Below are positions 11,003 to 33,540 of a stretch of DNA of 47,868 nt, in pieces. Each line of letters opens with the position of its first letter. The stretch's first letter is position 1. This DNA comes from Prevotella sp. (GTDB lineage Bacteria; Bacteroidota; Bacteroidia; Bacteroidales; Bacteroidaceae), in assembly GCA_017645905.1 (NCBI GenBank), contig JAGCNO010000002.1, forward strand, positions 1 through 47,868, written 5' to 3'. A program made the translations under genes and the position numbers. Below the pieces are notes generated by a model that was given only the letters and a program-made list of their open reading frames with translations, ran no database searches and was not told the DNA's origin.

Positions 11003-11009
11003 TTAAAAC

Positions 11010-17471: not shown

Positions 17472-17578
17472 ACTTTGAGCCGTTTGAACTATGAGAAAAA
17501 GCCGTTCTTTCTACTAGTAAAAGCCGTTCTTTCTGATAGAAAAAGCCGTTCTTTCTATGAGAGAAAGCCGTTCTTTCT
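17472..17578. repeat. 22-bp dyad array, copy 1 (four units)
   Basis: ACTTTGAGCCGTTTGAACT (17472-17490) is followed by exactly four tandem 22-bp units at 17491-17512, 17513-17534, 17535-17556 and 17557-17578. The core of each is A-G-A-A-A-x-A, then GCCGT, then TCTTTCT, a 7-bp dyad around 5 nt, with a variable 3-nt spacer. It lies between the fhs terminator and the GH53 promoter and has no coding potential. Confidence 0.9.
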
Positions 17579-17632
17579 GCCAGAGATATAAAAAAATGAT
17601 TTGCTATTGAGCTATTTATAAAATAAAATGTG

Positions 17633-17640
17633 TATTTTTG
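17633..17640 (+). promoter_or_regulatory. -7 box of the GH53 gene
   Basis: TATTTTTG matches TAnnTTTG. A -33 TTTG at correct spacing is not seen. The dyad array ends 54 bp upstream. Confidence 0.5.
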
Positions 17641-17677
17641 CAGCGTCCAAAAGCAAAGCGTAATGGATTATTCAAAC

Positions 17678-18703
17678 ATGAAAAGACTATTTCTTATTGC
17701 ATGGTGCCTTGTGACGACAGGCACGGTGCTGGCACAGACCGCCGACTTTGTGAAGGGTGCCGACGTGGGATTCCTGCAGGGACAGGAACGGCGGGGCGTG
17801 AAGTTCCACGACCGTAACGGACAGGAACGCGAATGTCTGGAACTCCTAAAGAACGACTACCAGATGAGTGCCATCAGGATGCGTGTCTGGGTGAATCCCC
17901 GTGGCGGCGACTGCGACAAGCACGCGCTACTGGCTATGGCTAAACGGGTAAAGGAGCTGGGCATGGACCTGATGGTGGACTTCCACTACAGCGACTCATG
18001 GGCAGACCCCGCTAAGCAGCCCATCCCTGCCTCCTGGCAAGGACACAGCTACAAGCAGATGAAGAAAGACCTGCGCAACCATACTGTCGAGGTATTGACA
18101 TTGTTGAAGGATAACGGCATAGCGCCACGCTGGGTACAGGTAGGCAACGAGACCGCCAATGGTCTGCTTTGGCCGATGGGGCACATCGAGAAGAACCCGA
18201 AGCAGTATGCCGGATTTATCCGCGCAGGCTATGATGCCGTGAAGAAAGTTTTTCCCAACACCATAGTCCTCATCCACCTGGACCGAGGCCACAAGCAGAG
18301 CCTCTACGACTGGAACCTTGACATCGTCCGCAAGTACGGTGGCCGGTGGGACATGGTGGGCATGTCGCTCTATCCCTACTGGGCTCAACAAGATCATCCC
18401 GAGCTGAAGGCCGACGACATCATCACCGACTGCATAGCCAACATCCGCCACGTCAGCGAGAAGTACCAGTGTGACGTGATGATTGTGGAGACAGGCTTCG
18501 AGGTAGACGAGCAGCACCCAGAGAAGATGGAGGAGGGCCGCCGCCAGCTGGCCCGTGTCGTCCGCGAGGCCCGCAGCGAGACCAACGGTCATTGCCGTGG
18601 TGTGTTCTACTGGGAACCACAGTGCCTGCCCGGCGGCTACAAGCTCGGAGCATTCAACAGCAAGGCCGCCCCGACCGTCATCATGGAAGGATTTATAGAG
18701 TAA
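17678..18703 (+). CDS. GH53 endo-beta-1,4-galactanase
   Basis: This 341-aa exported enzyme is predicted to cleave beta-1,4-galactan (pectin arabinogalactan I side chains). The signal peptide is residues 1-20 (ends VLAQ) and the catalytic barrel covers nearly the whole rest. The family motif KGADVGFLQGQE is near 26-37. The acid/base is Glu158 in VQVGNETANGLLWP and the nucleophile is Glu271 in VMIVETGFEV. ATG 17678 gives the clean signal peptide; ATG 17663 adds five residues. It ends 20 bp before a radical SAM gene on the same strand. No SusC/D pair is nearby, so this is not a full polysaccharide utilisation locus. It is likely periplasmic or outer-surface. Confidence 0.9.
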   Translation: MKRLFLIAWCLVTTGTVLAQTADFVKGADVGFLQGQERRGVKFHDRNGQERECLELLKNDYQMSAIRMRVWVNPRGGDCDKHALLAMAKRVKELGMDLMVDFHYSDSWADPAKQPIPASWQGHSYKQMKKDLRNHTVEVLTLLKDNGIAPRWVQVGNETANGLLWPMGHIEKNPKQYAGFIRAGYDAVKKVFPNTIVLIHLDRGHKQSLYDWNLDIVRKYGGRWDMVGMSLYPYWAQQDHPELKADDIITDCIANIRHVSEKYQCDVMIVETGFEVDEQHPEKMEEGRRQLARVVREARSETNGHCRGVFYWEPQCLPGGYKLGAFNSKAAPTVIMEGFIE

Positions 18704-18723
18704 ATAAAGATTATAGCACAGAC

Positions 18724-19785
18724 ATGGAACTGCGTAAACGTCTTGGGCTGGAGCTTGCCCGCATGATGAACAACAACCTGAAGCGTGAGCACCCACTGCG
18801 CCAACTGTTCTGGGAGAGTACGCTGCGTTGTAACGTGAGCTGCCGCCATTGTGGCAGCGACTGCCGTGCCTCGGCGGTGCATCCTGACATGCCCCGCGAG
18901 GACTTTTTCCGTGTGCTCGACGGCATCGCCGCCCGGTTGGACCCGCACAAGGTGTTCGTCATCGTCAGCGGGGGCGAGCCGCTCATGCGCGAAGACCTGG
19001 AGCTATGCGGCCGCGGCATCTACGAACGCGGTTTCCCCTGGGGCATGGTCACCAACGGCCTCGCCCTCACCCCCGAGCGTTTCCAAAGCCTGAAGGCAGC
19101 GGGATTGTGCTCCGTGGCCGTGAGCCTCGACGGACTGCAGGAGAGCCACGACTGGCTGCGCCGCCATCCGCAGAGCTTCCGCATGGCCAGCCGCGCACTG
19201 GACCTGCTCGTGGCCGACGGCGAGATAAAGTTCGACGCCGTGACATGTGTCAATCAGAAGAACTACGGACAGCTGGCTGAGATACGCGATTTCCTCATCA
19301 GCAAGGGAGTCAGGGACTGGCGCCTCTTCCCCATCTTCCCCGTGGGCCGCGCTGCCAACGACCCTATGCTGCAGGTGAGTAACGAGCAGTTCCGCGAACT
19401 GCTGCAGTTCATCAAGCAGACCCGGCGGGAAGGCAAGATTCACGCCAACTACAGCTGCGAAGGCTTTGTTGGCGACTACGAGGGCGAAGTGCGCGACTGG
19501 GTGTTCCGCTGTGCCGCCGGTGTCACCGTAGGCTCCGTGCTCATTGATGGCAGCATCAGCGCCTGCACCAGCATACGATCTAACTACGCTCAGGGGAACA
19601 TCTACGAAGACGACTTCCTCGAAGTGTGGGAAAACCGTTTCCAGACATTCCGCGACCGCTCGTGGATGAAGAAGGACAAGTGTGCCGACTGCAAGTACTG
19701 GCGATACTGCGAGGGCAACGGCATGCACCTGCGCACCGACGACGGGCGACTGTTAGTGTGCCATTTAGAACGAATCAACAAATAA
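18724..19785 (+). CDS. Radical SAM/SPASM maturase (rSAM/lipoprotein-system type)
   Basis: The 353-aa product starts at ATG 18724 (MELRKRLGLE). The radical SAM cluster is C36-x3-C40-x2-C43 (CNVSCRHCG), followed by VSGGEPLMRED and TNGLAL motifs. A C-terminal SPASM-like region has the cysteines FRCAAG, SACTS, CADCKYWRYC and LVCHLE, which would hold auxiliary clusters. The N-terminus and LFWESTLRCN segment resemble, from memory, the Bacteroidetes group named 'radical SAM enzyme, rSAM/lipoprotein system' (TIGR04133). The usual small lipoprotein partner is not evident here; the upstream neighbour is GH53, which carries an ordinary signal peptide. The substrate is unknown. The next gene starts 90 bp downstream. 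Confidence 0.85.
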   Translation: MELRKRLGLELARMMNNNLKREHPLRQLFWESTLRCNVSCRHCGSDCRASAVHPDMPREDFFRVLDGIAARLDPHKVFVIVSGGEPLMREDLELCGRGIYERGFPWGMVTNGLALTPERFQSLKAAGLCSVAVSLDGLQESHDWLRRHPQSFRMASRALDLLVADGEIKFDAVTCVNQKNYGQLAEIRDFLISKGVRDWRLFPIFPVGRAANDPMLQVSNEQFRELLQFIKQTRREGKIHANYSCEGFVGDYEGEVRDWVFRCAAGVTVGSVLIDGSISACTSIRSNYAQGNIYEDDFLEVWENRFQTFRDRSWMKKDKCADCKYWRYCEGNGMHLRTDDGRLLVCHLERINK

Positions 19786-19875
19786 ATAATGACATTTGCA
19801 ATAATATTATACTTTTTGAGTTATATAATAATAATGTATAAAAGCATTTTGGGAAATAGAAACAAAACGATAAAT

Positions 19876-22395
19876 ATGAGAAAAGTATTCTTCATTTTAG
19901 CCATGGTGCTTCTGTCGATGACCCCAACTCAGATGCAGGCTCAGTCGACAATGACAGACCAGGAGTTGATAACTTTCATCTTGAATGAGCGCGACAAGGG
20001 CTCCTCGCAAAACGACATTATCACGAAGCTGATGCAGCGCGGTGTGGACATTCAGCAGATACAGCGCGTGAAACGCAGATACGACCGACAAATCAACAAT
20101 GTCGGCCTTGGCGCTGTGGCCGAAGAGTCGGTGAACAAAGCTGCCAGCCGCATGAGAAAGAACAACGGAAAGGAGAAAAGGGTGGTGTCCAACAGCAGGA
20201 CTAAGATTCAGGGGACGATAAGCGGACGCTCAGCATACGACACGAACGATCCCGACTTCATTGCTTACAGGAATGAACTGGGCGACATGCTGCCCACGGA
20301 CTCCATGGCCATGCTCAGAGAGTATATCAAGGCAGAACGGGCCGGACAGAGCAAGATTTTCGGCCATGACCTCTTCAACAACGATAACCTGACGTTCGAG
20401 CCCAACATGAACATCGCCACGCCGAAGGACTATGTGCTGGGGCCTGGCGATGCCGTCATCGTAGATGTCTACGGAGCCTCGCAGGAAAGTTTCCATGAAA
20501 CCGTCTCGCCCGACGGCTACATCACCATACAGGGCTACGGACCCATACAGGTCGGCGGCATGAGTGTAAGCCAGGCCACGTCATACCTGCGCTCGCAGCT
20601 GGGCACACGCTACAGTAGCAGCCAGATACGCCTCAGCGTAGGGCAGACACGAACCATTACGGTGAACATAGCCGGTGAGGTGAACGCTCCAGGAACTTAC
20701 ACCATGTCGGCGTTCTCAACCGTGTTCAATGCACTCTACATGGCCGGCGGCATCAACGACCTGGGTACACTGCGTAACATCAAGGTCTATCGCAACAACC
20801 GTCTGCTATCGACCATCGACGTCTATGATTACATCATCAACGGAAAGGCTACGGGCAACGTGAAACTGACTGACAACGACATGATTATCGTCGAGTCGTA
20901 CGACTGTTTGGTGAACATCAGCGGTCGTGTAAAGCGTCCTATGTACTACGAAATGAAGCAGGGCGAAAGCCTCAATTCACTGATTAAATATTCAGGAGGC
21001 TTCGCCAGCGATGCCTATCGTACCAGCGTCAGGGTGATGCGCAAGAACGGGGCACTCCGCTCGGTACATACCGTGAACGAATTCGACATGGGTACATTCA
21101 AGATGGCCGACGGCGACAGCGTGACCGTGGACTCCATCATCGACCGCTACCAGAACATGGTCGAGGTGCTGGGTGCCGTGTTCCGTCCCGGAAAGTATAA
21201 CATCGGAGGTGATATAACCAGCGTGCGCTCCCTCATTGAGAGTGCACAGGGTGTAACCGAGGATGCCTTCACCACACGAGCCATCATGCACCGCATGAAG
21301 GAAGATCGTACACTCGAGGTGCTGGCCGTTGACCTTGCCGGCATCCTCGAAGGAAGAGTCAGCGACGTAGTGCTCCAGAACGAGGACGTGCTCTTCGTTC
21401 CCAGCCAGAGAGAAATCATTGAAAACCAGTCGATAACCATCATCGGCGAGGTGCAAGACCCCGGAATATACAAGTATGCCGAAAACGAGACGCTTGAGGA
21501 CTTCATCCTTCAGGCCGGCGGTCTCACAGAGTCGGCCTCTACGGCAAAAATAGACATAGCACGGCGCATTATTGACCCAAGTGCTACACAGACGAGCGAC
21601 ACCATCGCATACATTTACAGCTTCGACCTTAAAGATGGATTCGTTATTGGCGAAGGTAACAGTGCCTTCCACCTCGAACCCTACGATTGTGTATACGTGC
21701 GCCGGAGCCCGGGTTACACAGAACGGCGAAACGTGTCAGTCGTGGGTGAAGTGCTCTTCGAGGGTAGCTATGCCTTGTCGAAAAAGAGTGAACGCATCAG
21801 CGAGGTCATCAAGAGAGCTGGAGGACTCACCAAGACGGCCTATTCTCCCGGAGCAAGACTTATTCGCAGACGCACTGCCGACGAGATGGCCCGTCAAGAG
21901 GCTATACTGGAAGCTGCAAAGCGTTCCAACAAAGGAAAAGATTCTATCGACGTCAGCAGCCTCGACCTCGGACCGACGTATGAAGTGGGCATTGAGCTGG
22001 ACAAGGCTTTGAAAGAGCCAGGAAGCGATGCCGATATCGTATTGCGCACAGGAGACCGCATCGTAGTGCCCGAATATTCCGGAACAGTGAAAATCAACGG
22101 CGAAGTGATGTACCCCAACACCGTGAGCTTCGTAGAAGGCAAAGACCTGGAATACTATATCAACCAGGCAGGCGGATGGAGCGACAACTCAAAGAAGAGC
22201 AAGACATACATCATCTACATGAACGGCACCGTGGCAAAGGCCGACCGTAAGCATAAGCCCATGCCGGGATGCGAGATTGTAGTGCCTACGAAACAACGAG
22301 GACGCAAGATGTCGACTGCCGAGCTGCTGGCCATAGGAACCTCCACAGCCAGTATCGCCACGATGATTGCTACTATTGTTAACGTGCTGAAATAA
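19876..22395 (+). CDS. Polysaccharide export protein with multiple SLBB domains
   Basis: The 839-aa product starts at ATG 19876 (MRKVFFILAMVLL) with a signal peptide ending QMQAQ. The polysaccharide-export domain begins near residue 185 (DYVLGPGDAVIVDVYG). Several SLBB-type beta-grasp units follow, recognisable by repeated GEVNAPGTY, GAVFRPGKY and GEVQDPGIY motifs, and one hydrophobic helix ends the protein (about 815-839). Family members form outer-membrane export channels (Wza-like), but this is about twice Wza length, as is common in Bacteroidetes. No Wzc-like kinase, flippase or glycosyltransferase cluster is adjacent. It lies 6 bp ahead of dnaX, so it may be co-transcribed with it. Confidence 0.88.
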   Translation: MRKVFFILAMVLLSMTPTQMQAQSTMTDQELITFILNERDKGSSQNDIITKLMQRGVDIQQIQRVKRRYDRQINNVGLGAVAEESVNKAASRMRKNNGKEKRVVSNSRTKIQGTISGRSAYDTNDPDFIAYRNELGDMLPTDSMAMLREYIKAERAGQSKIFGHDLFNNDNLTFEPNMNIATPKDYVLGPGDAVIVDVYGASQESFHETVSPDGYITIQGYGPIQVGGMSVSQATSYLRSQLGTRYSSSQIRLSVGQTRTITVNIAGEVNAPGTYTMSAFSTVFNALYMAGGINDLGTLRNIKVYRNNRLLSTIDVYDYIINGKATGNVKLTDNDMIIVESYDCLVNISGRVKRPMYYEMKQGESLNSLIKYSGGFASDAYRTSVRVMRKNGALRSVHTVNEFDMGTFKMADGDSVTVDSIIDRYQNMVEVLGAVFRPGKYNIGGDITSVRSLIESAQGVTEDAFTTRAIMHRMKEDRTLEVLAVDLAGILEGRVSDVVLQNEDVLFVPSQREIIENQSITIIGEVQDPGIYKYAENETLEDFILQAGGLTESASTAKIDIARRIIDPSATQTSDTIAYIYSFDLKDGFVIGEGNSAFHLEPYDCVYVRRSPGYTERRNVSVVGEVLFEGSYALSKKSERISEVIKRAGGLTKTAYSPGARLIRRRTADEMARQEAILEAAKRSNKGKDSIDVSSLDLGPTYEVGIELDKALKEPGSDADIVLRTGDRIVVPEYSGTVKINGEVMYPNTVSFVEGKDLEYYINQAGGWSDNSKKSKTYIIYMNGTVAKADRKHKPMPGCEIVVPTKQRGRKMSTAELLAIGTSTASIATMIATIVNVLK

Positions 22396-22401
22396 TATAA
22401 T

Positions 22402-24165
22402 ATGGAATATATTGTTTCGGCAAGAAAGTATCGTCCCATGTCGTTCGACACCGTGGTGGGGCAGTCAGCACTGACCACTACGCTGAAGAACGCCGTGAAG
22501 AGTGGGAAACTGGCTCATGCATACCTGTTCTGCGGACCACGCGGTGTGGGAAAGACTACCTGCGCACGCATCTTTGCCAAGGCCATCAATTGTCAGAACC
22601 CGACAGTTGACGGAGAGGCCTGTGGGGAATGTGAGAGCTGCCAGTCGTTCAACGAGCAACGCTCGCTTAACATCTTCGAGCTTGACGCCGCCTCAAACAA
22701 CTCTGTGGAGCACATAAAGACGCTCATGGAGCAGACACGCATACCCCCGCAGATTGGCAAGTATAAAGTCTTTATTATTGACGAGGTGCACATGCTCTCA
22801 ACAGCAGCTTTCAACGCCTTCCTCAAGACACTGGAGGAGCCGCCCGCACACGTCATATTTATTCTCGCAACGACGGAGAAGCATAAGATTCTGCCCACTA
22901 TCCTCTCCCGCTGCCAGATTTACGACTTCGAGCGCATGACGGTGAAGAACACCATCGAACATCTGAAGCAAGTGGCCGAGAAGGAAGGCATACAATATGA
23001 GGAGGAGGCGCTGGCCGTCATTGCCGAGAAGGCTGATGGCGGCATGCGTGACGCCCTCTCCATCTTCGACCAGGCGGCATCGTTCTGCCAGGGCAACATC
23101 ACTTATCAGAAGGTCATTGAAGACCTAAACGTGCTCGATGCCGAATACTACTTCCGTATTATCGACTACTCCACACTGAACAAGGTGTCTGACATAATGG
23201 TGCTGCTTAACGACGTGCTCAACAAGGGTTTCGATGCTGGACTACTTGTACAGGGTCTTGCCCGGCACACACGCAATGTGCTCATGGCGAAAGACCCACA
23301 GACGTTGCCACTGTTAGAGGTCAGCGACCAGATGCGACAGCGTTATCTGGAACAGGCACAGCGAGCTGATACCCGTTTCCTCTATGCAGCGTTGAAAATC
23401 ATGAACGACTGCGACATCAACTACCGCACATCATCCAACAAGCGGCTGCTTGTAGAACTGACCCTTATTCAGGTGGCTCAGATAACACAACCAGAAGATG
23501 TTCCTGGCAGTGGGCGCAAGCCCAGAAGATTAAAATCCCTGTTCAAACAACTTATCCAGCAAGCGCAGCCCGTAAAGAAGTCGGTCCCGCAGGTAGCCGC
23601 GGTTGAGCAGCCAGATACCCCTCAAGAACCTCCAAAGGATAGTCCTCAGCCTCTTCCAGCAGCTAAGGAAGCACCTACTCTTCGTCTTTCAAGTATTGGC
23701 ACTTCTTGGAACAATCTGCGCCAACAGAACAAGAAAATGCAGATACTCCCCGGCATGCAGGGAACAGATGCCAAGAAAGGAGAGGAACTGGAACAATTCT
23801 CACAGCAAGACCTTGAATTGCAATGGATGGCCATGTGTAAGCGCATGCCACAGCGACTCAGCGGCATTGCGGCCCGCATGAAGAACATGAATCCCGTCAT
23901 TGCCGGGGGTAATTGGCAGTCACCAACTATCGAGGTTATCGTCCCCAACGAAATCATTAAGACCGAGATGGAGCAAATACGCGGCAGCATACTTGCCACG
24001 CTGAAACTCCATCTTCACAATTCTGCCATTACTCTTGCCCTGCGTGTGGCCGAGCAGGAAGAGAAAGCTAAGCTCCTAACCCGTCGTGAGCAGTTCGAGC
24101 TACTTACTTCTCAGAATTCTACCATAGAAAAACTCCGTGAGGTATTCGACCTCGAGCTGGCATAG
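22402..24165 (+). CDS. dnaX: DNA polymerase III gamma/tau subunit
   Basis: This 587-aa clamp-loader ATPase has Walker A GPRGVGKT (45-52), zinc cysteines C64/C74/C77/C80, Walker B VFIIDEVH (123-130) and the SRC sensor (169-171). Residues about 360-480 are a Pro/Gln/Lys-rich linker of low conservation; the rest is a tau-like C-terminal domain. I saw no obvious A-run slippage site in the linker. It begins 6 bp after the SLBB gene, and its stop overlaps the birA frame. Confidence 0.95.
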   Translation: MEYIVSARKYRPMSFDTVVGQSALTTTLKNAVKSGKLAHAYLFCGPRGVGKTTCARIFAKAINCQNPTVDGEACGECESCQSFNEQRSLNIFELDAASNNSVEHIKTLMEQTRIPPQIGKYKVFIIDEVHMLSTAAFNAFLKTLEEPPAHVIFILATTEKHKILPTILSRCQIYDFERMTVKNTIEHLKQVAEKEGIQYEEEALAVIAEKADGGMRDALSIFDQAASFCQGNITYQKVIEDLNVLDAEYYFRIIDYSTLNKVSDIMVLLNDVLNKGFDAGLLVQGLARHTRNVLMAKDPQTLPLLEVSDQMRQRYLEQAQRADTRFLYAALKIMNDCDINYRTSSNKRLLVELTLIQVAQITQPEDVPGSGRKPRRLKSLFKQLIQQAQPVKKSVPQVAAVEQPDTPQEPPKDSPQPLPAAKEAPTLRLSSIGTSWNNLRQQNKKMQILPGMQGTDAKKGEELEQFSQQDLELQWMAMCKRMPQRLSGIAARMKNMNPVIAGGNWQSPTIEVIVPNEIIKTEMEQIRGSILATLKLHLHNSAITLALRVAEQEEKAKLLTRREQFELLTSQNSTIEKLREVFDLELA

Positions 24166-24931
24166 TCACTTATCACATATCACTTTGCACTTCATCCATC
24201 TCCCTGAGACCGACTCGACCAACCTATGGCTTCGCAACCACGCCGATGAATTCTCGTCAGAAGAGTTCACCGTCGTCTGGACTGACCACCAGACTGCTGG
24301 CCGGGGGTGCGGCACCAATATCTGGGAAAGCGCTTCGGGAGAGAACCTGCTTTTCTCCGTTCTTTGTCACCCAAAGAATATTCCTGCCATTCAGCAATTC
24401 CTACTTCTGGAAACCATGGCATTGGCGATAAAAGACATCCTCGACCGCACACTACCCCATGACAAAGAAATCAAGATAAAGTGGCCTAACGACATCTACT
24501 GGCACGACAGCAAACTGGGCGGGACGCTTACCGAGTGTGCACTCAACGGTCAGAACATGCGCTGGTGCATCATCGGCACAGGACTGAATATCAATCAGAC
24601 AGTCTTTTCTTCCCAGCTGCACAACCCCGTCTCACTGGCACAGATAACAGGAAAGCACCTCGAATTGTCTCCCCTACTCCACCGAATATGCGAGGCATTC
24701 ATCCTCCGTCTGCAGCACTTGGAAAATGAACTTGACACCTTCATCGACCAGCTGCAAGAAGAATATATGTCCGCACTCTTTCGTCGCCACGGTTTTCACC
24801 CTTTTCACGACGCTCACGAAACCTTCGAGGCCGAAATCGTCAGCATTGCCCCCGACGGTACCCTCACCCTACGCGACAAACAACAACGCCTCCGCAACTA
24901 CAAGTTCAAGGAAATTTCGTTCAAGATTTAA
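24137..24931 (+). CDS. birA: Biotin-[acetyl-CoA-carboxylase] ligase
   Basis: This enzyme of up to 264 aa joins biotin to the biotin-carrier lysine through biotinyl-AMP. Motifs are LPETDSTN (about 22-29), the biotin/ATP loop TAGRGCGTNIWES, the KIKWPNDIYW segment and GTGLNINQT. No N-terminal DNA-binding domain is present, so it is an enzyme only. The start is uncertain. ATG 24137 overlaps dnaX by 29 nt, and codons 11-19 come from a CACTTAT heptamer repeat (24167-24194). TTG 24185, inside the repeat, would begin LHFIHLPETDS, which fits the family's usual N-terminus better. Confidence 0.9.
   Translation: MRYSTSSWHSHLSHITLHFIHLPETDSTNLWLRNHADEFSSEEFTVVWTDHQTAGRGCGTNIWESASGENLLFSVLCHPKNIPAIQQFLLLETMALAIKDILDRTLPHDKEIKIKWPNDIYWHDSKLGGTLTECALNGQNMRWCIIGTGLNINQTVFSSQLHNPVSLAQITGKHLELSPLLHRICEAFILRLQHLENELDTFIDQLQEEYMSALFRRHGFHPFHDAHETFEAEIVSIAPDGTLTLRDKQQRLRNYKFKEISFKI
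24167..24194. repeat. Heptamer repeat CACTTAT x4 at the birA start
   Basis: Units CACTTAT, CACATAT, CACTTTG and CACTTCA run in tandem immediately after the dnaX stop and are within the birA frame. Confidence 0.7.
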
Positions 24932-24945
24932 ATGGCGTGATAACA

Positions 24946-25702: not shown

Positions 25703-26325
25703 GCTTGTAAGAAATCATAAATCTCTGCCGTCCAGTCTGCACCGTTCTGCGGACAGAAAGTTCTGATGCCTATCTGACTGGCAGCGGCTACGTTTCGCGG
25801 CCCGTCATCCACGAAGAGACATTCTCCCGGAGGAGTCTGCTCGGCCATGAGCACCCGGCGGAAGAATGTCTCGTCGGGTTTCATTACCTTCATCTGATAG
25901 CTCAGGTAACAGGCATCGAAATAATAGTCCAGGGCGTGACCCTTGCCGTCGAAGGCTGTCGACATGGCCCATGCCATCATGCAGGGATTGGTATTTGAAA
26001 GCAGAACGACGCGGTAGCCTTCTTTCCGCAGCCGGACCAGTGCGTCAAGGTTCCGCTGAGGAACTTCTTTTGCATAGCCCTGCCAGGCATACTCACACTC
26101 CGACATAGTCACTTCGCGACCAATAATCAGACTCAACTCCTTGCGGAAGTCTTCGGCTGTGATAAGCCCATTCTCAAGTTCGCCAAAAATGCCTTTCTGC
26201 GTATAAGGGTCGAGCCACGTTGTGGCATCCTTGAGACCCAATTCGGTGAAGCGACGTACCGCCTCATCGTGGTCAATGGTCATGATGACCCCACCGAGGT
26301 CAAATATAATAGTCTTAATCATCAT
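25699..26325 (-). CDS. HAD-superfamily hydrolase (subfamily IA)
   Basis: This 208-aa cytoplasmic phosphatase-like protein has all four HAD motifs: FDLGGVI (nucleophile Asp9), LLSNTN (motif II), the Lys in KVMKPDETFF (motif III) and FVDDGPRN (motif IV). The cap is helical, with LDPYTQKGIFGELENG. Related enzymes act on sugar phosphates or nucleotides; the substrate here is not predictable. It is last of a three-gene overlapping operon, its start overlapping the smpB stop by 4 nt. Confidence 0.88.
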   Translation of the reverse strand: MMIKTIIFDLGGVIMTIDHDEAVRRFTELGLKDATTWLDPYTQKGIFGELENGLITAEDFRKELSLIIGREVTMSECEYAWQGYAKEVPQRNLDALVRLRKEGYRVVLLSNTNPCMMAWAMSTAFDGKGHALDYYFDACYLSYQMKVMKPDETFFRRVLMAEQTPPGECLFVDDGPRNVAAASQIGIRTFCPQNGADWTAEIYDFLQA

Positions 26326-26804
26326 CGAAAATCTTTCATCGCCCGGTCAATCTCTCGTCTGTCCTCCTTATCTTTCAGTGTCTGTCGTTTGTCGTAGGCT
26401 TTCTTTCCCTTGCAGAGCGCGAGGTCCATCTTCGCTCGTCCATTCTCGTCAATCCAAATTAGTGTAGGCACAATGGTGTAGCCCGTCTGCCGTGTAGCAC
26501 TATCCAATCGCGCTATCTCACGTCGATTAAGAAGCAGTTTGCGGTCGCGCTTCTGGACGTGGTTGTTATAAGAGCCATAGAAATAGGGACTTATGCTCAT
26601 TCCCTTCACCCACACTTCACCATTGATAATAGTGCAGTAGGTATCCACCAGACTAGCTTTTCCAGCACGTATGGATTTTATTTCCGTGCCGGTAAGCACC
26701 AGACCGGCGGTATATTCCTCAATGAAGAAATACTCAAAGGCTGCCTTCCTGTTTTTTATTTGTACGGGGCTCTTCTTGCGGAGCTCCTCTTGCTGCTTGT
26801 TCAT
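26322..26804 (-). CDS. smpB: SsrA-binding protein
   Basis: This 160-aa tmRNA-binding protein works in ribosome rescue. Motifs are IKNRKAAFEYFFIEEYTAGLVLTG (split here as IKNRKAAFEY and EYTAGLVLTG), TEIKSIRAGK and the C-terminal Lys/Arg-rich tail from ALCKGKKAYDKRQTLK to RAMKDFR. Length is normal. It is translationally coupled at both ends by 4-nt overlaps. The tmRNA gene itself is not in the window. Confidence 0.95.
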   Translation of the reverse strand: MNKQQEELRKKSPVQIKNRKAAFEYFFIEEYTAGLVLTGTEIKSIRAGKASLVDTYCTIINGEVWVKGMSISPYFYGSYNNHVQKRDRKLLLNRREIARLDSATRQTGYTIVPTLIWIDENGRAKMDLALCKGKKAYDKRQTLKDKEDRREIDRAMKDFR

Positions 26805-27307
26805 TTTATCGTTGCAAACTTTTCCAGATTATTGTCAACGTACTGTGCTATCTCTTCCGTCCATCGCGGCTCGTTCTCTATGAAAGCATCGTCGTAGTCA
26901 TCAAACTGCGGGTACTGCTCATAGAGCGCCATGAACTCCTCCTCAGTGCAGTCGCGCTCCAGTGACTCGCGATTCTCCAGCCACAAAGTGTGCACCTCGT
27001 AGAGCATCTTCGACAAGTCTCGTATGCCCCACATCTTGTTCAACGCCTTAGCAAAGGGATTCTTGAAGATGAATGGGCCATACCCATTGTGTATCAGCTG
27101 GATAAAGCCGCCCACCATCACCTCCTCCCTTAAGGTGTCCCAACAGAGGAGTGTCATCTGGTCAGCGTTCAATTCAGCCATTGTCTCCGGCGTAGGCTCG
27201 CCGCCGATGGCCTCGCGAAGCGCATGAACAAACACTTGCAGAAAGTCGCTCATGCCAGCCAGTGCTGCCTGCGACAATTCGGAGTCTTTTACGGTTATCT
27301 GTTTCAT
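26801..27307 (-). CDS. DUF4375/DMP19-like cytoplasmic protein
   Basis: The 168-aa product starts at ATG 27305-27307 (MKQITVKDSEL); the upstream TTG (27317-27319) is part of the promoter. Features are GGFIQLIHNGYGPFIF, a conserved block of the DUF4375 family, then a helical acidic C-terminus (FDDYDDAFIENE). Function is unknown; DMP19-type members have been linked to DNA mimicry in other bacteria, but that role is not shown here. It heads the operon with smpB and the HAD hydrolase. The -7 box ends only 9 nt from the ATG, so the message is probably leaderless. Confidence 0.75.
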   Translation of the reverse strand: MKQITVKDSELSQAALAGMSDFLQVFVHALREAIGGEPTPETMAELNADQMTLLCWDTLREEVMVGGFIQLIHNGYGPFIFKNPFAKALNKMWGIRDLSKMLYEVHTLWLENRESLERDCTEEEFMALYEQYPQFDDYDDAFIENEPRWTEEIAQYVDNNLEKFATIK

Positions 27308-27316
27308 ATCTGGCCG

Positions 27317-27348
27317 CAAAATTACAACAATTCCCGCAAACCACCAAA
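27317..27348 (-). promoter_or_regulatory. Promoter of the DUF4375-smpB-HAD operon (leaderless)
   Basis: Read on minus: TTTG (27348-27345), a 20-nt spacer, then TAATTTTG (27324-27317). The ATG begins at 27307, so the predicted transcript start falls within a few bases of it. Confidence 0.75.
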
Positions 27349-27468
27349 TAATTAGCGAAAAATCCGGGTGCCACGCCGATGACGCCCGGACTCAGAAGGG
27401 AGTCTGAAATATTGCCAAACAATTTGAGTCCTTCTCATGGCAGGGAATTGCGCTTGTCTAATTCCATT

Positions 27469-27603
27469 TTGAGAAAGAGCCGTTCTTTCAATGAGAAAGA
27501 GCCGTTCTTTCTATGAGAATAAGCCGTTCTTTCAATGGGAAAGAGCCGTTCTTTCTCCAACCCCTTGAGACAGTCATACTATGGCTTTGAACGGCTCAAA
27601 GTA
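27469..27603. repeat. 22-bp dyad array, copy 2 (four units)
   Basis: Four exact 22-bp units lie at 27469-27490, 27491-27512, 27513-27534 and 27535-27556, each with GAGCCGTTCTTTC or AAGCCGTTCTTTC at the core. The bordering palindrome CTTTGAACGGCTCAAAG (27585-27601) sits 28 bp after the last unit, on the opposite side compared with copy 1. The array lies in the 504-bp divergent gap between the DUF4375 gene and gyrA, so it is not the terminator of a flanking gene. Confidence 0.9.
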
Positions 27604-27663
27604 TAGGGCAGTAGTTAAATAAGTGAAGGCAGAAGTCCTCTGTGGGTTAAAAATTGCTTATTT

Positions 27664-27695
27664 TTTGTTTATTAGCGGAAAAAGTAGTACCTTTG
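27664..27695 (+). promoter_or_regulatory. Promoter of gyrA
   Basis: TTTG (27664-27667), a 20-nt spacer, then TACCTTTG (27688-27695). The leader before gyrA is about 110 nt and contains an AAATCGC/AAATAGT-like short repeat stretch. Confidence 0.75.
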
Positions 27696-27811
27696 TCGGC
27701 AGTTTGAAAAAGGGCAAAACGCAACAGCGGCCATTTAAAGTGCCTCTACGGCGATTTTCCGCCCAAATGACAAATCGCAAATCAAAAATCAGTAAATAGT
27801 AAATTAACACA

Positions 27812-30400
27812 GTGGATCAGACGTTTGACAACGACAGGATTTTAAAGATTAACATTGAGGAGGAGATGAAGTCTTCCTACATCGACTATTCGATGTCGGT
27901 GATTGTGGCCCGTGCCCTCCCCGATGTTCGTGATGGATTCAAGCCCGTGCACCGCCGCATACTCTACGGTATGCAGGAGCTAGGCAACACGAGCGACAAG
28001 CCGTATAAGAAGTGTGCACGCGTAGTTGGCGACGTGCTCGGTAAGTATCACCCCCACGGCGACAGTTCCGTGTACGGTGCTCTGGTACGTATGGGCCAGG
28101 AGTGGAACATGCGCTACACGCTCGTTGACGGACAGGGTAACTTCGGTAGCGTGGACGGCGACTCGCCGGCTGCCATGCGATACACAGAGTGCCGCCTCTC
28201 GAAGATGGGTGAGCACATCATGGACGACCTCGAAAAGGAGACCGTCGACATGGATCCGAACTTCGACAATACGCTGGTGGAGCCCAGCGTAATGCCGACA
28301 AAAGTGCCCAATCTGCTGGTGAATGGCGGCAACGGCATTGCCGTGGGTATGGCAACAAACATCCCCACGCACAACCTCGGTGAGGTCATTGACGGCTGCT
28401 GCGCCTTCATCGACAACCCCGACATCGACACCGACGGGCTGATGGAGTACATCCCTGGCCCCGACTTCCCGACGGGTGCATATATTTATGGTATACAGGG
28501 CGTGCGCGATGCCTACGAGACGGGCCGCGGACGTATCGTCATGCGTGCCAAGGCTGAAATTGAGGCCGGTGAAACGCACGACAAAATTGTGGTGAACGAA
28601 ATTCCCTACGGTGTGAACAAGGCCGAGCTGGTGACCTACATCGCCGAGCTGGCCAACCAGCACAAGATTGAGGGCATTGCCAACGTGAACGACGAGAGCG
28701 GACGCGACGGCATGCGCATCGTGGTAGACTGCAAGCGTGACGCAAACGCTAACGTCATACTGAACAAGTTGTTCAAGATGACGGCTCTACAGAGCTCATT
28801 CTCAGTGAATAACATTGCACTGGTACCCATCAAGACCAGCGACGGCACACGCCTTCGTCCGAAGTTGCTTTCGCTGCGTGAGTGCATCCGCTACTTCATC
28901 GACCATCGCCACGAGGTGACCATCCGCCGCACAAAGTACGACCTGAAGAAGGCTCAAGAGCGTGCCCACATTCTGGAAGGACTCATCATTGCCGTGAACA
29001 ACATCGACGAGGTGGTGCACATCATTCGTCAGTCGTCAACGCCCAGCGACGCCCAGCGTAACCTAGAGAAGCGTTTCGACCTGGACGAGCTGCAGTCGAA
29101 GGCCATCGTCGACATGCGCCTGTCGCAGCTCACCGGTCTGCGTGTGGAGCAGCTGCACCAGGAGTATGACGACTTGATGAAGCTCATAGCCGACCTGCAG
29201 GAAATCCTCGACAACCCCGAGCGCTGCAAGGAAGTTATGAAGCAGGACCTCTTAGAGGTGAAGGAGAAATACAGCGACGAGCGCCGTACGGAGATTATTC
29301 CCTTCGACCATGAGTTCAATGCAGAGGACTTCTATCCCGACGACCCTGTTGTCATCACCCTCTCGCACATGGGCTACATCAAGCGCACACCGCTCTCAGA
29401 ATTCCATGCACAGAGCCGTGGCGGCGTGGGAGCCAAGGGAGCCCGCCATCGCGACAACGACTTTACCGAGTATATCTATCCCGCCACAATGCACAACACG
29501 CTTCTTTTCTTTACTCAGAAGGGGCGTTGCTACTGGCAGAAGTGCTATGAGATACCCGAGGGCGACAAAAACTCAAAGGGCCGCGCCATACAGAACATGC
29601 TCAACATCGAGAGCGACGACGCCATCAATGCCGTGCTGCGCATCAAGAACTTCGGTGATGAAGAATTCCTGAAGTCACACTACGTGGTGTTCGCCACCAA
29701 GCAGGGTATCATCAAGAAGACACGCCTCGATGCCTACAAGAATGTGCGTGCTGCCGGTGTCAAAGCCCTGATTTTCAACGAGGGCGACGAGGTAGTAGGC
29801 GTACGTCTGACCAACGGCAAGAATGAAATCGTTATGGCTAACCGCAACGGACGTGCAGTGCGCTTCAACGAGAGCGAGATTCGTGCTATGGGCCGTGTGG
29901 CTACAGGTGTGACGGGTATGAAGCTCGACGGCGGCGACGACGAGGTGGTGGGCATGGTATGTGTCAACGACCCGCAGACAGAGACCATTATGGTTGTATC
30001 GGAGAATGGCTACGGCAAGCGCTCAGACATCGAGGATTACCGCAAGACCCACCGAGCCACTCAGGGTGTGCGTACGTTGAACATCACAGAGAAGACTGGT
30101 CGTCTGGTGGCCATCAAGATTGTCACCGACGACAATGACCTAATGATTATAAACAAGAGCGGCATACTCATCCGGCTGAACGTCAGCGAGGTACGTGTCA
30201 TGGGACGTGCCACGCAGGGTGTCCGCCTCATCAACCTCACAAAGAAGAACGACACTATCGCCAGCGTCTGTAAGGTACAGAAAGCGACCGAGGAGGAACT
30301 TGCCGAGGAAGCTGAAGAAAATATAGAGGGCGCAGAGATAACTGAGTCTTCAGATACTCCGGAGAACGCCGCCCCGATGGTGGACTTCGAAGAACAGTAA
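27812..30400 (+). CDS. gyrA: DNA gyrase subunit A
   Basis: This 862-aa topoisomerase subunit has catalytic Tyr124 in MRYTECRL. The start codon is GTG (27812). The quinolone-pocket segment is [17 protein letters not shown]: the serine equivalent of E. coli Ser83 is present (Ser85), while the Asp87 equivalent is Gly89. A GyrA-box-like [10 protein letters not shown] precedes the C-terminal beta-pinwheel (about 540-830), and an acidic tail ends the protein. It is preceded by a 504-bp gap with its own promoter and followed by a TPR protein after 64 bp. Confidence 0.97.
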
Positions 30401-30464
30401 CCAATCGTTAAATAGTACACATTTAATTATTTTATAGTAAATATCATTAACCTTTTAACTCATA

Positions 30465-31721
30465 ATGCAAATGAAAAAGTTTTTGACCATGGCCCTGATG
30501 GCAGCATTTGCCACCACGACCTTTGCACAGGAAGCCACCGTTAAGGAGGCAAAGAAACTCTTTGGTAAGAGCGACTTCGACGCTGCTGCCCAGTTGCTCG
30601 CACCGGCCCTCACGTCGGCAGAGACCATTGACAAGGCCGCCGCATGGAACCTCCAGTCGGAAATCATGCACGGCAAATATAACGCCATCTCTTCCAAGCA
30701 GATGGAGAATCAGGTGAAGAAGATTAACGAGGCCACCGACACCCTCGGCATGCATCAGGCTGCCGTTGCCGCTTGGGAGGCCGCTTTGAAGTGCGACGAG
30801 TTCGACCAGCTGCCAGACGCTAAGGGCAAGGTGAAGCTGAAATATCGCACACCCGCTCAGACTAAGTACAAGAACTTCGGTGTCTCGCTCGTTCAGGCCG
30901 GTCAGTTCTTCTATCAGAAGAAGGACACCAAGAACGCTATCCGAGCTTGGAACGCCTATCTCGACATGAAGAAATCCCCGATTTTCGCCGAGGTGGCCGA
31001 TTTTCCCAAAGACCCGTTCTACGATGACATCGTCTACTATGTATCGTTCCTCTCCTATCAGGAGAAGGACTACGACACAGCCATGAAGTATGCCCAGCAG
31101 CTTGCCGCCAACCCCGAGAAGGCTGACGAAGCCAACGAAATCCTGCTCTTCTCCAAGAAGGAGACCCTCAAGAGCAAGGCTGATTCTCTGGAGTATGTCG
31201 GCATGGTGAAAGACCTGCACAAGGCCAACCCCGACAACGAGCGCTACTTCAACCTGCTCGTCGACTACTTCAACCACGCTCCCAAGGCCGACAAGCTGGC
31301 TTGGGTGGAAGAGGAGATTGCCGTCGCCCCACAGAACAAGATGCCTTGGGCCATCAAGGGTGAGTCGCTCATGGGCGATGAGAAGTGGGACGAGGCCGTC
31401 GAGGCTTTCAAGAAGGCCGTAGAGATCGACCCCGAGTGGGTGCCCTGCCTCTTCAACATCGGCATCTGCCTTAACTCAAAGGCTATCGCCCTCAACGACC
31501 AGCTCATGGACAAAAAGACCATGGGTCTGACACCCGAGAACCTGGAGAAGGTGAAGGACGTTCTCCGCGACGCACAGGTGTACCTGGAGAAGACCCGCGA
31601 GTTCGACCCCGACCAGCTGCAGACCAAGTGGGGATACCCCCTCTACCGCATCTACTACTCACTTGGCAACAAGGAGAAGATGGCAGAGTTAGAGAAGCTC
31701 GACCCCACGCTGGCACAGTAA
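30465..31721 (+). CDS. Exported TPR-repeat protein
   Basis: This protein of up to 418 aa has a signal peptide (MKKFLTMALMAAFATTTFAQ from ATG 30471; ATG 30465 adds two residues). Helical repeats fill the body, and a clear TPR unit, DEAVEAFKKAVEIDPEW, lies near residues 306-322. It probably acts as a periplasmic scaffold. Similar proteins follow gyrA in other Bacteroidales as far as I recall, but no specific partner is known. Confidence 0.82.
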   Translation: MQMKKFLTMALMAAFATTTFAQEATVKEAKKLFGKSDFDAAAQLLAPALTSAETIDKAAAWNLQSEIMHGKYNAISSKQMENQVKKINEATDTLGMHQAAVAAWEAALKCDEFDQLPDAKGKVKLKYRTPAQTKYKNFGVSLVQAGQFFYQKKDTKNAIRAWNAYLDMKKSPIFAEVADFPKDPFYDDIVYYVSFLSYQEKDYDTAMKYAQQLAANPEKADEANEILLFSKKETLKSKADSLEYVGMVKDLHKANPDNERYFNLLVDYFNHAPKADKLAWVEEEIAVAPQNKMPWAIKGESLMGDEKWDEAVEAFKKAVEIDPEWVPCLFNIGICLNSKAIALNDQLMDKKTMGLTPENLEKVKDVLRDAQVYLEKTREFDPDQLQTKWGYPLYRIYYSLGNKEKMAELEKLDPTLAQ

Positions 31722-31749
31722 AATTGATAATTGACAATTGATAATTGAA
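31722..31749. repeat. Heptamer repeat AATTGAT x4 that supplies a start codon
   Basis: Units AATTGAT, AATTGAC, AATTGAT and AATTGAA are in tandem. The TTG in the last unit (31745-31747) is the apparent start codon of the glycosyltransferase. Confidence 0.75.
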
Positions 31750-32893
31750 GCTAGCCGTCGTCATCGTAAGCTACCGCGTAAAGCACTACCTCGAGCAGTG
31801 CATCATTAGCGTGGAGCGTGCCACGGAAGACATCGACCGCGAGATTGTCGTGGTGGACAACCATTCCGACGACGGTACCGTGGAGTTCCTCAAGGAACGC
31901 TTTGCCGACCGCATCACGCTCGTAGAGAGCAACCACAACCTGGGATTCTCGAAGGCCAACAACATTGCCATCCGCCAGACAGACAGCGACTACGTGCTGC
32001 TGCTCAACCCCGACACCTTTGTAGCCGAGGACAGTTTGCACAAGGTGCTGACGTTCATGGACGAGCATCCGAAGAGTGGAGGATGCGGAGTGAAGATGCA
32101 TAATGCCGACGGCAGCGTGGCACGAGAGTCACGACGCGGAATACCTACGCCCTGGGTGGCCCTGCAGAAGATGCTGGGCCGCTCAGGGCGATATTATATG
32201 AGCCACCTGCCCTGGGACCAGCCCGCACAGATAGAAGCCATGAGCGGTGCTTTCTGCATGTTGCGGCGCGAAGCCCTGGACAAGGTCGGACTGCTCGACG
32301 AGGATTTCTTCATGTATGGAGAAGACATCGACCTAAGCTACCGGCTGCTCAAGGGAGGCTACGAGAACTGGTACCTGCCGGCCAGTATCGTCCACTACAA
32401 GGGTGAGTCTACCCAGAAGTCGAGCTTCCGCTACGTTCACGTGTTCTACCAGGCCATGCTCATCTTCTTCCGCAAGCACTACAGCCATGCCTCCTGGTTC
32501 ATCACCCTGCCCATCAAGGCCGGCATCTACCTTCGTGCCTTTCTGGCACTGCTGCAGATGCTCTACTGGAACCTGCGTCTGTCGTTGGGTTTCGTCGACA
32601 AAGACACCGTCCAGCCCGATTATATGTTTATCGGTAGTGATGCCATGCTCGATGAGTGTCGCCAGCTGGTTCGCCGTAAAGGACTCAACGCCACCTTTAC
32701 GAAAGAACCCTTCATTCTCCCCTGTTCAAAAGAGGCTACTGATGGGAACTCTCCCGTCTGCATAGTTTACGACACCTCGACCTTCTCCTTCAGCCAGATT
32801 ATTGCTTTGGCATCAAAGAACAGCCCGGCACGCATCGGCACCTATTCTTCCCTCACCCACACCCTCATCACACCCACGGAAATAATTCGATGA
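31745..32893 (+). CDS. Family 2 glycosyltransferase
   Basis: This 382-aa enzyme has an N-terminal GT-A fold starting VVIVSYRVKHYLEQC. The nucleotide-sugar and metal motif is LLLNPDTF and the acceptor motif is YGEDIDLSYRL (ED-type), both typical of rhamnosyl/galactosyl-type GT2 enzymes. A hydrophobic amphipathic stretch (YLRAFLALLQMLYW) may associate with the membrane. No ATG is available; TTG 31745 gives the expected MKLAVVIVSYR start and lies in a heptamer repeat. It overlaps the acetyltransferase by 4 nt. The acceptor and sugar are unknown. Confidence 0.88.
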   Translation: MKLAVVIVSYRVKHYLEQCIISVERATEDIDREIVVVDNHSDDGTVEFLKERFADRITLVESNHNLGFSKANNIAIRQTDSDYVLLLNPDTFVAEDSLHKVLTFMDEHPKSGGCGVKMHNADGSVARESRRGIPTPWVALQKMLGRSGRYYMSHLPWDQPAQIEAMSGAFCMLRREALDKVGLLDEDFFMYGEDIDLSYRLLKGGYENWYLPASIVHYKGESTQKSSFRYVHVFYQAMLIFFRKHYSHASWFITLPIKAGIYLRAFLALLQMLYWNLRLSLGFVDKDTVQPDYMFIGSDAMLDECRQLVRRKGLNATFTKEPFILPCSKEATDGNSPVCIVYDTSTFSFSQIIALASKNSPARIGTYSSLTHTLITPTEIIR

Positions 32894-33405
32894 CCGAACC
32901 TGTCAAAGTTACCCTGCGGGCGATGGAGCCCGAAGACCTCGACCTGCTCTACCGTATAGAGAACGACCGCGAGCTGTGGAGCCTGGGAAGCACCAACGTG
33001 CCCTATTCTCGATATGCCCTCCACGACTACATGGCCAACAGCACCGGCGACATCTACACCGACAAGCAGGTGAGACTTATCATCGAGAATGAAGACCATG
33101 ATACGGTCGGAATCGCAGACCTCACCAACTTTGACCCCAAGCACCTTCGTGCCGAGATTGGCCTGGTGATAGAGAAGCCCATGCGACGTCAGGGCTATGC
33201 CACCGCAGCCCTTGTGCAACTCCACGACTACGCCCTCCACACCCTCCACCTTCATCAGGTGTTTGCTATTGTGAGCATCGACAACATCGCAACCATCAGC
33301 CTTCTCGCCCTTCAGGGCTACGAAGAGACTGCCCGCCTCCGCCAATGGATTTATGACGGGGCGGACTATCACGATGCCCTGCTCATGCAGCGGTTGCTCC
33401 TGTAG
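32890..33405 (+). CDS. GNAT-family N-acetyltransferase
   Basis: This 171-aa protein has the GNAT acetyl-CoA loop RRQGYATAAL (about 98-107), the preceding EIGLVIEKP strand, and the RimJ/SpeG-like start VTLRAMEPEDLDLLYRIEN. It is coupled to GT2 by an ATGA overlap, which suggests joint work on an envelope sugar or a shared precursor (inference). The substrate is unknown. Confidence 0.87.
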   Translation: MTEPVKVTLRAMEPEDLDLLYRIENDRELWSLGSTNVPYSRYALHDYMANSTGDIYTDKQVRLIIENEDHDTVGIADLTNFDPKHLRAEIGLVIEKPMRRQGYATAALVQLHDYALHTLHLHQVFAIVSIDNIATISLLALQGYEETARLRQWIYDGADYHDALLMQRLLL

Positions 33406-33432
33406 CATAAGTTTCTGAAAAACACGAAGTTG

Positions 33433-33540
33433 AGAAAGAACGGATTTCTCTCATAGAAAGAACGGCTTTTTCCCATAGAAAAAACGGCTTTTTCTGGTAG
33501 AAAAAACGGCTTTTTCTCAGGGTTTGAACGGCTCAAAGTT
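33433..33540. repeat. 22-bp dyad array, copy 3 (four units, inverted)
   Basis: Units lie at 33433-33454, 33455-33476, 33477-33498 and 33499-33520. The cleanest core is AGAAAAAACGGCTTTTTCT, a perfect 7-bp stem around ACGGC. The bordering GGTTTGAACGGCTCAAAGTT follows directly (33521-33540). Read on minus this is the same order as copy 1. It lies upstream of the glycogen operon promoter. Confidence 0.92.

What the first reader, a model, noticed from the sequence alone, without database searches (positions are those of the whole stretch)
17472..33540. Dispersed intergenic array of four 22-bp dyads with a GAACGGCTC border
Copies at 17491-17578, 27469-27556 and 33433-33520 each hold exactly four 22-bp units: a 7-bp dyad (AGAAAAA / TTTTTCT), a 5-nt centre (ACGGC) and a 3-nt spacer. 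Each has the near-palindrome TTTGAACGGCTCAAAG beside it. A single unit is at 13-34. A period of 22 bp is about two helical turns, so the dyads face the same side of DNA, as expected for cooperative protein binding. One copy lies in a divergent gap, so it is not just a terminator. I know of no described Bacteroidetes repeat with this plan.
Basis: partly seen in the sequence, partly recalled or inferred. Interest (0 to 1): 0.82.

Follow-up and report, generated by a model that had tools for sequence, protein, structure and literature searches.

The report
Evenly spaced 22-bp dyad arrays, Prevotella
This Prevotella genome carries what looks like a few hundred small clusters of about four near-palindromic 22-base units between its genes, kept in exact helical step and spread along the sampled chromosome more evenly than chance, which hints at a DNA-level, possibly chromosome-organising, role that has not been tested.

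Summary
The arrays are real and belong to a large family. In the own genome (3.40-Mb draft) 671 adjacent unit pairs match (reversed-pattern control 0). An 825-kb sample holds 78 sites. Of 98 non-redundant arrays 50 have four units; 290 of 308 core-to-core steps are exactly 22 bp. Within arrays the 17-bp core differs at 8% and the 5-bp linkers at 40% of positions, yet linker length is kept. Sites are over-dispersed: mean spacing 9.7 kb, 3 of 57 intervals below 4.5 kb against 16.9±2.9 in a matched null (not significant if only gaps of 300 bp or more are kept). A small E. coli REP control is not significantly even by CV. Arrays occupy divergent, tandem and convergent gaps without strand preference, so they are hardly terminators. 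The same letters were found in few other genomes, but the plan (7+5+7+3 = 22 bp) recurs with other letters here and in other Prevotella. No Y1 transposase passes its cut-off in the draft; flanks share no leader, tail or terminal repeat. Best reading: phased binding platforms for a fast-evolving DNA-binding protein, perhaps marking chromosome domains. A selfish repeat with insertion immunity is nearly as likely. Binder and mode of spread are unknown.

The parts
17491..17578 (+). array 1, four 22-bp units, tandem gap between FTHFS and GH53 genes
17472..17489 (.). border near-palindrome ACTTTGAGCCGTTTGAAC beside array 1
27469..27556 (+). array 2, four units, divergent gap between a DMP19 gene and gyrA
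27585..27601 (.). near-palindrome CTTTGAACGGCTCAAAG, 28 bases from array 2; a counterpart GTTTTGACGGCTCAAAG stands at the same place before the gyrA promoter of sister G723
33433..33520 (-). array 3, four units (GCCGT strand is -), tandem gap between GNAT and glycogen-debranching genes; missing from the same gap of sister G723
33523..33538 (.). border near-palindrome TTTGAACGGCTCAAAG beside array 3
13..34 (-). single unit at the contig edge, probably a truncated array
43299..43361 (.). second-letter array: three units AGTTTCC / N5 / GGAAACT in the same 22-bp phase, 9.5 kb from the nearest AGAAA-family site

Best explanation
The arrays are DNA-level platforms of about four near-palindromic sites. 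The sites are held exactly two helical turns apart so that a DNA-binding protein, probably a dimer, can load cooperatively on one face of the helix. Shown: core kept, linker free in letters but fixed in length; mode of four units; no clear strand preference, and all three gap classes used; over-dispersion. Inferred: that a protein reads the cores, that it co-evolves with them (in the one aligned sister array letters differ while phase and unit number stay), and that the spread-out platforms mark or constrain chromosome or supercoil domains, as has been proposed for E. coli BIMEs. How the sites spread is not known.
For: Within-array mismatch 0.082 in the core against 0.396 in the linkers; 290 of 308 steps are 22 bp and 3 are 23-24 bp. 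Over-dispersion: CV 0.426 against 0.742±0.074 in a null matched for gap size and class, 0 of 10,000 draws as low; intervals below 4.5 kb 3 of 57 against 16.9±2.9. Both neighbour orientations repel: below 4.5 kb 2 of 34 same-strand and 1 of 29 opposite-strand intervals. Six dyad arrays with other letters in the sample lie at least 4.4 kb from the nearest AGAAA site (what was left out is under evidence against). One array aligns with sister G723: four units in both, no length change across the array, different letters. No polarity towards contig GC skew (37 of 78 agree) or gene-strand majority (45 of 78). No terminator-like placement. Letter-free odd-centred dyads pair up in excess at 11, 22, 33 and 44 bp (at 22 bp 20 against 1.96 expected in this genome, 13 against 1.40 in gyrA-nearest genomes; lesser peaks such as 23 bp, 9, in this genome and 32 and 47 bp in the others). 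A passage in PMC6907758 says that a BIME impeded supercoil diffusion and that BIMEs are candidate domain barriers.
Against: No binder is identified and none was tested. Dyad symmetry of the AGAAA family is weak: 0 of 24 consensus units at p<=0.05, and no covariation. The spacing result held with gaps of at least 50, 100, 150 and 200 bp but not when only gaps of 300 bp or more were kept (CV P 0.28), and is weaker for sites with three or more units (P 0.0007 and 0.0047 under the two nulls). The repulsion looks like a hard core and not a ruler: intervals above 15 kb are as many as in the null (8 against 9.8±2.3). That other-letter arrays share the spacing is weak after block matching (P 0.035); from the seven other runs of the letter-free scan I dropped a coding one 1.7 kb from a site and an AT-rich one 19 kb away, and some non-dyad 22-bp arrays lie close to family sites (78, 234, 1746 and 3844 bp). 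Of six gaps compared with sister G723 (each known to hold an array in at least one of the two) one array is aligned; one gap has an array at another place, one has a different 22-bp array, and three have an array in one species only, so positions turn over. Spacing could not be tested in a second Prevotella: G797 holds 4 family arrays in 127 kb.
Confidence: 0.35

Rival explanations
1. A selfish miniature repeat that spreads by an unknown enzyme, with new copies avoided or lost near existing ones (target immunity or purging). Phase and unit number are properties of the copying enzyme and not of a host function.
For: Same-letter arrays found in few genomes; positions turn over between sisters, three of six gaps with an array in one species only; hard-core spacing fits immunity as well as function; one pair of arrays differs at 2 of 83 positions with different downstream flanks; the 22-bp period recurs with other letters across the genus.
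Against: No shared leader, tail or terminal repeat in the flanks; no Y1 transposase over cut-off in the draft genome, and no link with arrays in 30 genomes that I chose (8 of 16 array-bearing, 8 of 14 without a GCCGT match); unit 1 of one array is no more like unit 1 of another than like other units, so whole arrays do not look like copies of one master; repulsion holds for opposite orientation too.
Confidence: 0.33
2. Replication slippage or a polymerase/nuclease quirk in Prevotellaceae makes 22-bp tandem duplications of any intergenic sequence; the AGAAA family is one that also spread.
For: Non-coding arrays of 22 bp are the commonest of period 15 or more in samples not chosen for arrays: 16 of 35 in gyrA-nearest genomes and 7 of 17 in C1 stretches of the genus. 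Many are not clear dyads: 16 of 99 period-22 consensus units outside the AGAAA class (which still holds a few AGAAA variants) and 0 of 24 inside it reach p<=0.05, against 3 of 46 of period 21.
Against: Does not explain about 10% core divergence between arrays at many loci, core-versus-linker conservation, or over-dispersion. Adjacent linkers are not more alike than non-adjacent ones (0.598 against 0.614), unlike recent tandem growth.
Confidence: 0.16
3. Operators of a transcription factor regulon, about four sites per regulated promoter.
For: Near-palindromic 19-bp units in phase; 27 of 70 divergent gaps occupied; array 2 lies upstream of the conserved gyrA promoter region.
Against: 9 of 27 convergent gaps are occupied too; an extrapolated few hundred sites spread evenly is not how regulons are usually laid out (general knowledge).
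Confidence: 0.1
4. RNA hairpins: transcription terminators or mRNA ends.
For: Some arrays fold well as RNA: array 2 on its + strand z -6.3, array 3 on its - strand z -3.2, the AGTTTCC array at 43299 z -4.3, AGTTCGC array of G488 z -8.8, L220 z -13.2.
Against: No clear strand preference in tandem gaps (14 against 22); 27 of 70 divergent gaps occupied; array 1 folds little better than shuffles on either strand (z -1.3, -1.0) and array 3 on its + strand z -0.95; no covariation inside the family; no Rfam match at the arrays.
Confidence: 0.05

Closest known systems
REP / BIME elements of E. coli and other bacteria (GTAG and CGTC super-families, PMC3733652, passages read)
   Same: Short intergenic near-palindromes in many copies, clustered, species-specific; BIMEs proposed as supercoil-domain barriers (PMC6907758, passages).
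   Different: Direct head-to-tail units in a rigid 22-bp phase; no constant GTAG or CGTC tag in the linkers; no RAYT over cut-off in the draft; common in divergent gaps (27 of 70), whereas the E. coli REP sites of my control sat in 0 of 53; over-dispersed, whereas the CV of E. coli REPs was not significantly below its null (2046 of 5000 draws as low).
BrickBuilt minisatellite MITE of Porphyromonas gingivalis (PMC4596501, abstract and passages read)
   Same: Bacteroidales, intergenic, short tandem unit (23 nt), limited to one species and its close kin.
   Different: BrickBuilt has leader and tail with terminal inverted repeats in many of its copies, 19 copies in ATCC 33277, and no spacers; here 22 bp with variable linkers, no shared flanks, and an extrapolated few hundred sites.
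TnpA-REP subclass 2.6 atypical structures of Bacteroidetes (PMC6006769, passages read)
   Same: Secondary structures in Bacteroidetes genomes, copies of which occur elsewhere in the genome.
   Different: Those flank Y1 transposase genes; no Y1_Tnp match over cut-off in this draft (best E 9e-4, 20.7 bits). Flanks of Y1 genes in the other genomes were not read.
BOX/RUP-type interspersed repeats of streptococci (search listing only, PMC3049150; details recalled)
   Same: Modular intergenic repeat with variable copies of an inner unit (recalled).
   Different: No boxA/boxC-like ends seen here; fixed phase and over-dispersion were not compared with BOX.

Membership tests
REP/BIME | short palindromic unit in many intergenic copies | tested here: inconclusive
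   many and intergenic: 671 unit pairs, 1 of 78 site midpoints more than 30 bp inside a called gene; but the dyad is imperfect (A.C in 237 of 259; 0 of 24 significant)
REP/BIME | unpaired GTAG or CGTC tag at one end | tested here: not met
   spacers vary: ATG 78, ATT 23, CAT 18 and more; outer position A142 G54 C49 T14 of 259 units
REP/BIME | associated RAYT (Y1) transposase | tested here: not met
   no PF01797 match over cut-off in G000, a draft 87.5% complete; CGTC REPs also lack one
REP/BIME | units in alternating orientation (dimers) | tested here: not met
   units are direct, 290 of 308 steps 22 bp
BrickBuilt-like MITE | leader, tail and terminal inverted repeats around the minisatellite | tested here: not met
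   flank columns weak beyond the first two or three bases; border motif within 60 bp in 18 of 98 arrays
BrickBuilt-like MITE | period 23 without spacers | tested here: not met
   period 22 with a variable 5-bp linker
intrinsic terminator | placed downstream of genes in the sense orientation | tested here: not met
   27 of 70 divergent gaps occupied; 14 against 22 orientation in tandem gaps
chromosome-domain element | over-dispersed along the chromosome | tested here: met
   0 of 10,000 matched draws as even; not significant with gaps of 300 bp or more
chromosome-domain element | bound by a nucleoid protein or topoisomerase | not testable with these tools
   needs ChIP or pull-down

The most novel reading that the evidence does not exclude
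Prevotella chromosomes carry a letter-free punctuation: clusters of about four dyads in exact 22-bp phase, kept about 4.5 kb or more apart, whose letters are rewritten from species to species by a fast-evolving binder while the plan (often AG-N5 / N5 / N5-CT / N3) stays. Families with different letters inside one genome are interchangeable members of the same spacing system.
Probability: 0.2. Interest if true: 0.92.

Novelty: new variant of a known kind. Interest (0 to 1): 0.71.

Why it matters
If the even spacing reflects function, a common gut and rumen genus has a readable map of chromosome-organising sites, and what sets bacterial domains on the 10-kb scale becomes testable by deleting arrays. 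If it reflects insertion immunity, it exposes an undescribed way of spreading short repeats with no recognised transposase. Either way the 22-bp phase with changing letters is a handle for finding the protein behind it.

Tried and rejected
RAYT/REP: searched PF01797 in 30 chosen genomes; no link with arrays and none over cut-off in the own genome. Terminator/RNA: set aside on gap class and orientation, folding and Rfam (only two tRNAs in the window). Covariation inside the AGAAA family: absent, so RNA structure is not argued. Universal dyad claim: weakened; 16 of 99 other period-22 units and 0 of 24 AGAAA units are significantly dyadic. Phage or plasmid origin: array 1 has no match in phages or plasmids, and an exact two-unit pattern none in viral contigs. 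Polar (KOPS-like) sites: no polarity. Deletion between direct repeats as the cause of spacing: not favoured, opposite-strand neighbours repel too. Spacing in a second species: G797 too sparse. Master-array copying: not supported by unit-index comparison. Literature: (0 papers). Searches found 216, 100, 125, 39 and 643 papers, of which 12, 12, 12, 10 and 8 were listed; none of those listed describes this repeat by title, the rest were not seen. The library holds open-access papers only, so absence from print is not shown.
Full report
What is there. The window is contig C62 of a 3.40-Mb draft in 181 contigs, 87.5% complete and 5.58% contaminated. Array 1 is between FTHFS and GH53 genes, array 2 in the divergent gap of a DMP19 gene and gyrA, array 3 between a GNAT and a glycogen-debranching gene.

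How many. Two units in phase match 671 times in the own genome, control 0. I sampled 825 kb in 15 long contig blocks (24% of the assembly; contigs chosen from the match lists) and found 78 sites, 74 of them with two or more units. Extrapolated this is about 320 sites; from the 671 pairs at about three pairs per array it is about 220. Both figures are inference.

Phase and conservation. In 98 non-redundant arrays (sample plus loci L001-L060) core-to-core steps are 22 bp in 290 of 308, 23-24 bp in 3, and 42-44 bp (one unit too diverged) in 15. Within arrays the 17-bp core differs at 8.2% and the 5-bp linker at 39.6% of positions; between arrays 9.7% and 57.1%. Letters in the linker are nearly free but its length is not. 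I read this as purifying selection on core and phase; homogenisation of cores alone is an alternative. The dyad itself is imperfect: pair 6/14 is A.C in 237 of 259 units and position 5 is a T in 81, 79 of them facing a T, and 0 of 24 AGAAA-family consensus units are more dyadic than shuffles at p<=0.05.

Spacing. Mean distance is 9.7 kb over 63 intervals. CV is 0.456, against 0.798 and 0.727 when sites are placed in random gaps of at least 100 bp with uniform or length weights, 0 of 3000 draws each; for sites with three or more units CV is 0.548 and P 0.0007 and 0.0047. With a null matched for gap size and class the CV is 0.426 against 0.742±0.074 (0 of 10,000), and 3 of 57 intervals are below 4.5 kb against 16.9±2.9. 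With gaps of 50, 100, 150 or 200 bp and more, counted without the array, the result holds; with 300 bp and more it does not (P 0.28; 32 of 73 gaps occupied). Long intervals are not rarer than in the null (8 above 15 kb against 9.8±2.3), so this is repulsion at short range and not a ruler. As a control I ran the same kind of script on REP sites in 450 kb of E. coli K-12: 24 sites found with one recalled half-motif, CV 0.903 against 0.959±0.179 (2046 of 5000 draws as low), 2 of 22 intervals below 4.5 kb against 5.1±1.7 (241 of 5000 draws as low), 0 of 53 divergent gaps occupied. The control is small, and its short-interval count leans the same way at about P 0.05.

Context. Gaps of at least 100 bp occupied: 35 of 126 tandem, 27 of 70 divergent, 9 of 27 convergent; 1 of 78 midpoints lies more than 30 bp inside a called gene. 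In an earlier, smaller sample with cruder gene sites fell inside called genes. Genes were called by my own script and not by an annotation pipeline. No clear orientation rule: 14 against 22 in tandem gaps, 37 of 78 with contig GC skew, 45 of 78 with the gene-strand majority.

Other letters, same plan. Two units with this family's letters were found in 2 of 399 family genomes: the own, and G124 of another genus with 2 matches. The genomes of the two named records have 19 (G454) and 15 (G455) matches. The first, out-of-phase pattern hit 1 of 60 relatives, the own (out of phase by one base, so it understates counts). A pattern fixing only GCCGT three times at period 22 matched in 120 of 398 genus genomes with different letters around it; the reversed control also matched in many of them, which I did not tally, and this search selects for GCCGT. 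A letter-free dyad scan (odd centre) gave pairs at 22 bp of 20 (expected 1.96) in G000, 11 (1.60) in array-selected genomes, 13 (1.40) in the 20 gyrA-nearest genomes, no excess in 20 C1 stretches, and 8 (1.52) in other genera and families, where the listed cases do not look like arrays; other distances over threshold were 11, 33 and 44 bp, and also 23 bp (9) in G000 and 32 and 47 bp in the gyrA set, with small peaks for even centres. Clear cases with 7+5+7+3 are AGTTCGC-GCCGT-GCGAACT (G488, upstream of gyrA), AGATAAG-TGCCA-CTTATCT (G788), AGTCTAC-TCCCG-GTAGACC (G520, upstream of gyrA), and inside G000 the AGTTTCC..GGAAACT family (5 arrays in the sample, one at window 43299-43361) and one AGTTTGA-GCCGT-TCAAACT array. 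Non-coding tandem arrays of period 22 are the commonest of period 15 or more in samples not chosen for arrays: 16 of 35 and 7 of 17; 3 of 3 in other genera of the family, 0 of 5 in other families of the order. Not all are dyads: 16 of 99 units outside the AGAAA class at p<=0.05, against 3 of 46 of period 21 (part of these loci were chosen for GCCGT arrays).

Do other letters share the spacing? Six dyad arrays with other letters lie 4.4-17 kb from the nearest AGAAA site. The chance that all are at least 4.4 kb away is 0.0046 over all blocks and 0.035 with block matching: suggestive only. From the scan's seven other runs I dropped a coding one (1.7 kb from a site) and an AT-rich one (19 kb), and added one AGTTTCC array found by consensus. 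Non-dyad 22-bp arrays do lie close to family sites in some places.

Sister species. G723 has gyrA 88% identical and appears to be RGIG5135 (G455), by equal size and equal match coordinates. Six gaps were compared, each known to hold an array in at least one of the two. One array is aligned: four units in both, no length change across the array, and changed letters, such as AGAGAAA-GCCGT-TTTCTCT in G723 and a variant unit AGAAAAG-ATAGT-CTTTTCT in G000. In one gap both have an array at different places. Upstream of gyrA both have 22-bp arrays of different letters. The GNAT gap and a gap on C80 have one only in G000, and the gap after window 38415 only in G723. So plan and number were kept in the one array that persists, but positions turn over.

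Origin. Flanks share no leader, tail or terminal repeat. Unit index does not matter between arrays (core similarity 0.90-0.94 whatever the index, 45 four-unit arrays), linkers are more alike within (0.587) than between arrays (about 0.41), and one pair is nearly identical, 2 of 83 differences, with different downstream flanks but a similar TTCTCATTTCTCATTTTT run upstream. PF01797 has no match over cut-off in G000, and genomes with and without arrays do not differ (8 of 16, 8 of 14; genomes chosen by me, 'without' meaning no GCCGT match).

Known kinds. Passages of PMC3733652, PMC6006769 and PMC6907758, and the abstract and passages of PMC4596501, were read. The arrays fail the tag, RAYT and orientation tests of REPs and the leader/tail test of BrickBuilt. 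They may still work like BIMEs as domain barriers; that is inference. I file them as a new variant of the known kind 'dispersed intergenic palindromic repeat'. What sets them apart is the rigid phase with changing letters and the over-dispersion.

Noticed in passing
window 10890-11003 and 14270-14305; L218 10677-10816: Inverted-repeat element with ends AGCCCCCTAAGTTAGGGG / CCCCTAACTTAGGGGGCT and GGTCTGAACAAGCG; relatives sit between the gyrA promoter and start codon in G723, G488 and G631. Looks like a MITE.
   Followed up: partly
window 14934-14980, 40871-40966, 43125-43155, 31722-31748: 7- and 14-bp period runs (AACTCCT/AACTCTT and similar), common in non-coding sequence of this genome (39 non-coding arrays of period 7 in the 825-kb sample).
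   Followed up: no
L008, L012, L015, L018, L038, L047: A repeat close to TTCATTACGCAAGCGTCTCCTTCGTCGCCGAGCGCTTTC lies directly beside several arrays and between sub-arrays.
   Followed up: no
L006, L007, L014, L028, L030: A palindrome close to AATTCTCTCGAGAATT stands between or beside sub-arrays, nearly in the 22-bp register.
   Followed up: no
window 43591-47841: ORF of 1416 aa with 69-bp (23-codon) tandem repeats at 43862-44336; resembles surface leucine-rich repeat proteins (recalled, not tested).
   Followed up: no
window about 27645-27700: gyrA promoter region (GTTAAAAATTGCTTA .. TAGTACCTTTG) well conserved in many of the 20 nearest genomes while the sequence just upstream is replaced wholesale.
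   Followed up: partly
G454 (CAJOOC01): All 19 matches are on one strand of a few contigs; binning contamination from an array-rich species is possible.
   Followed up: no
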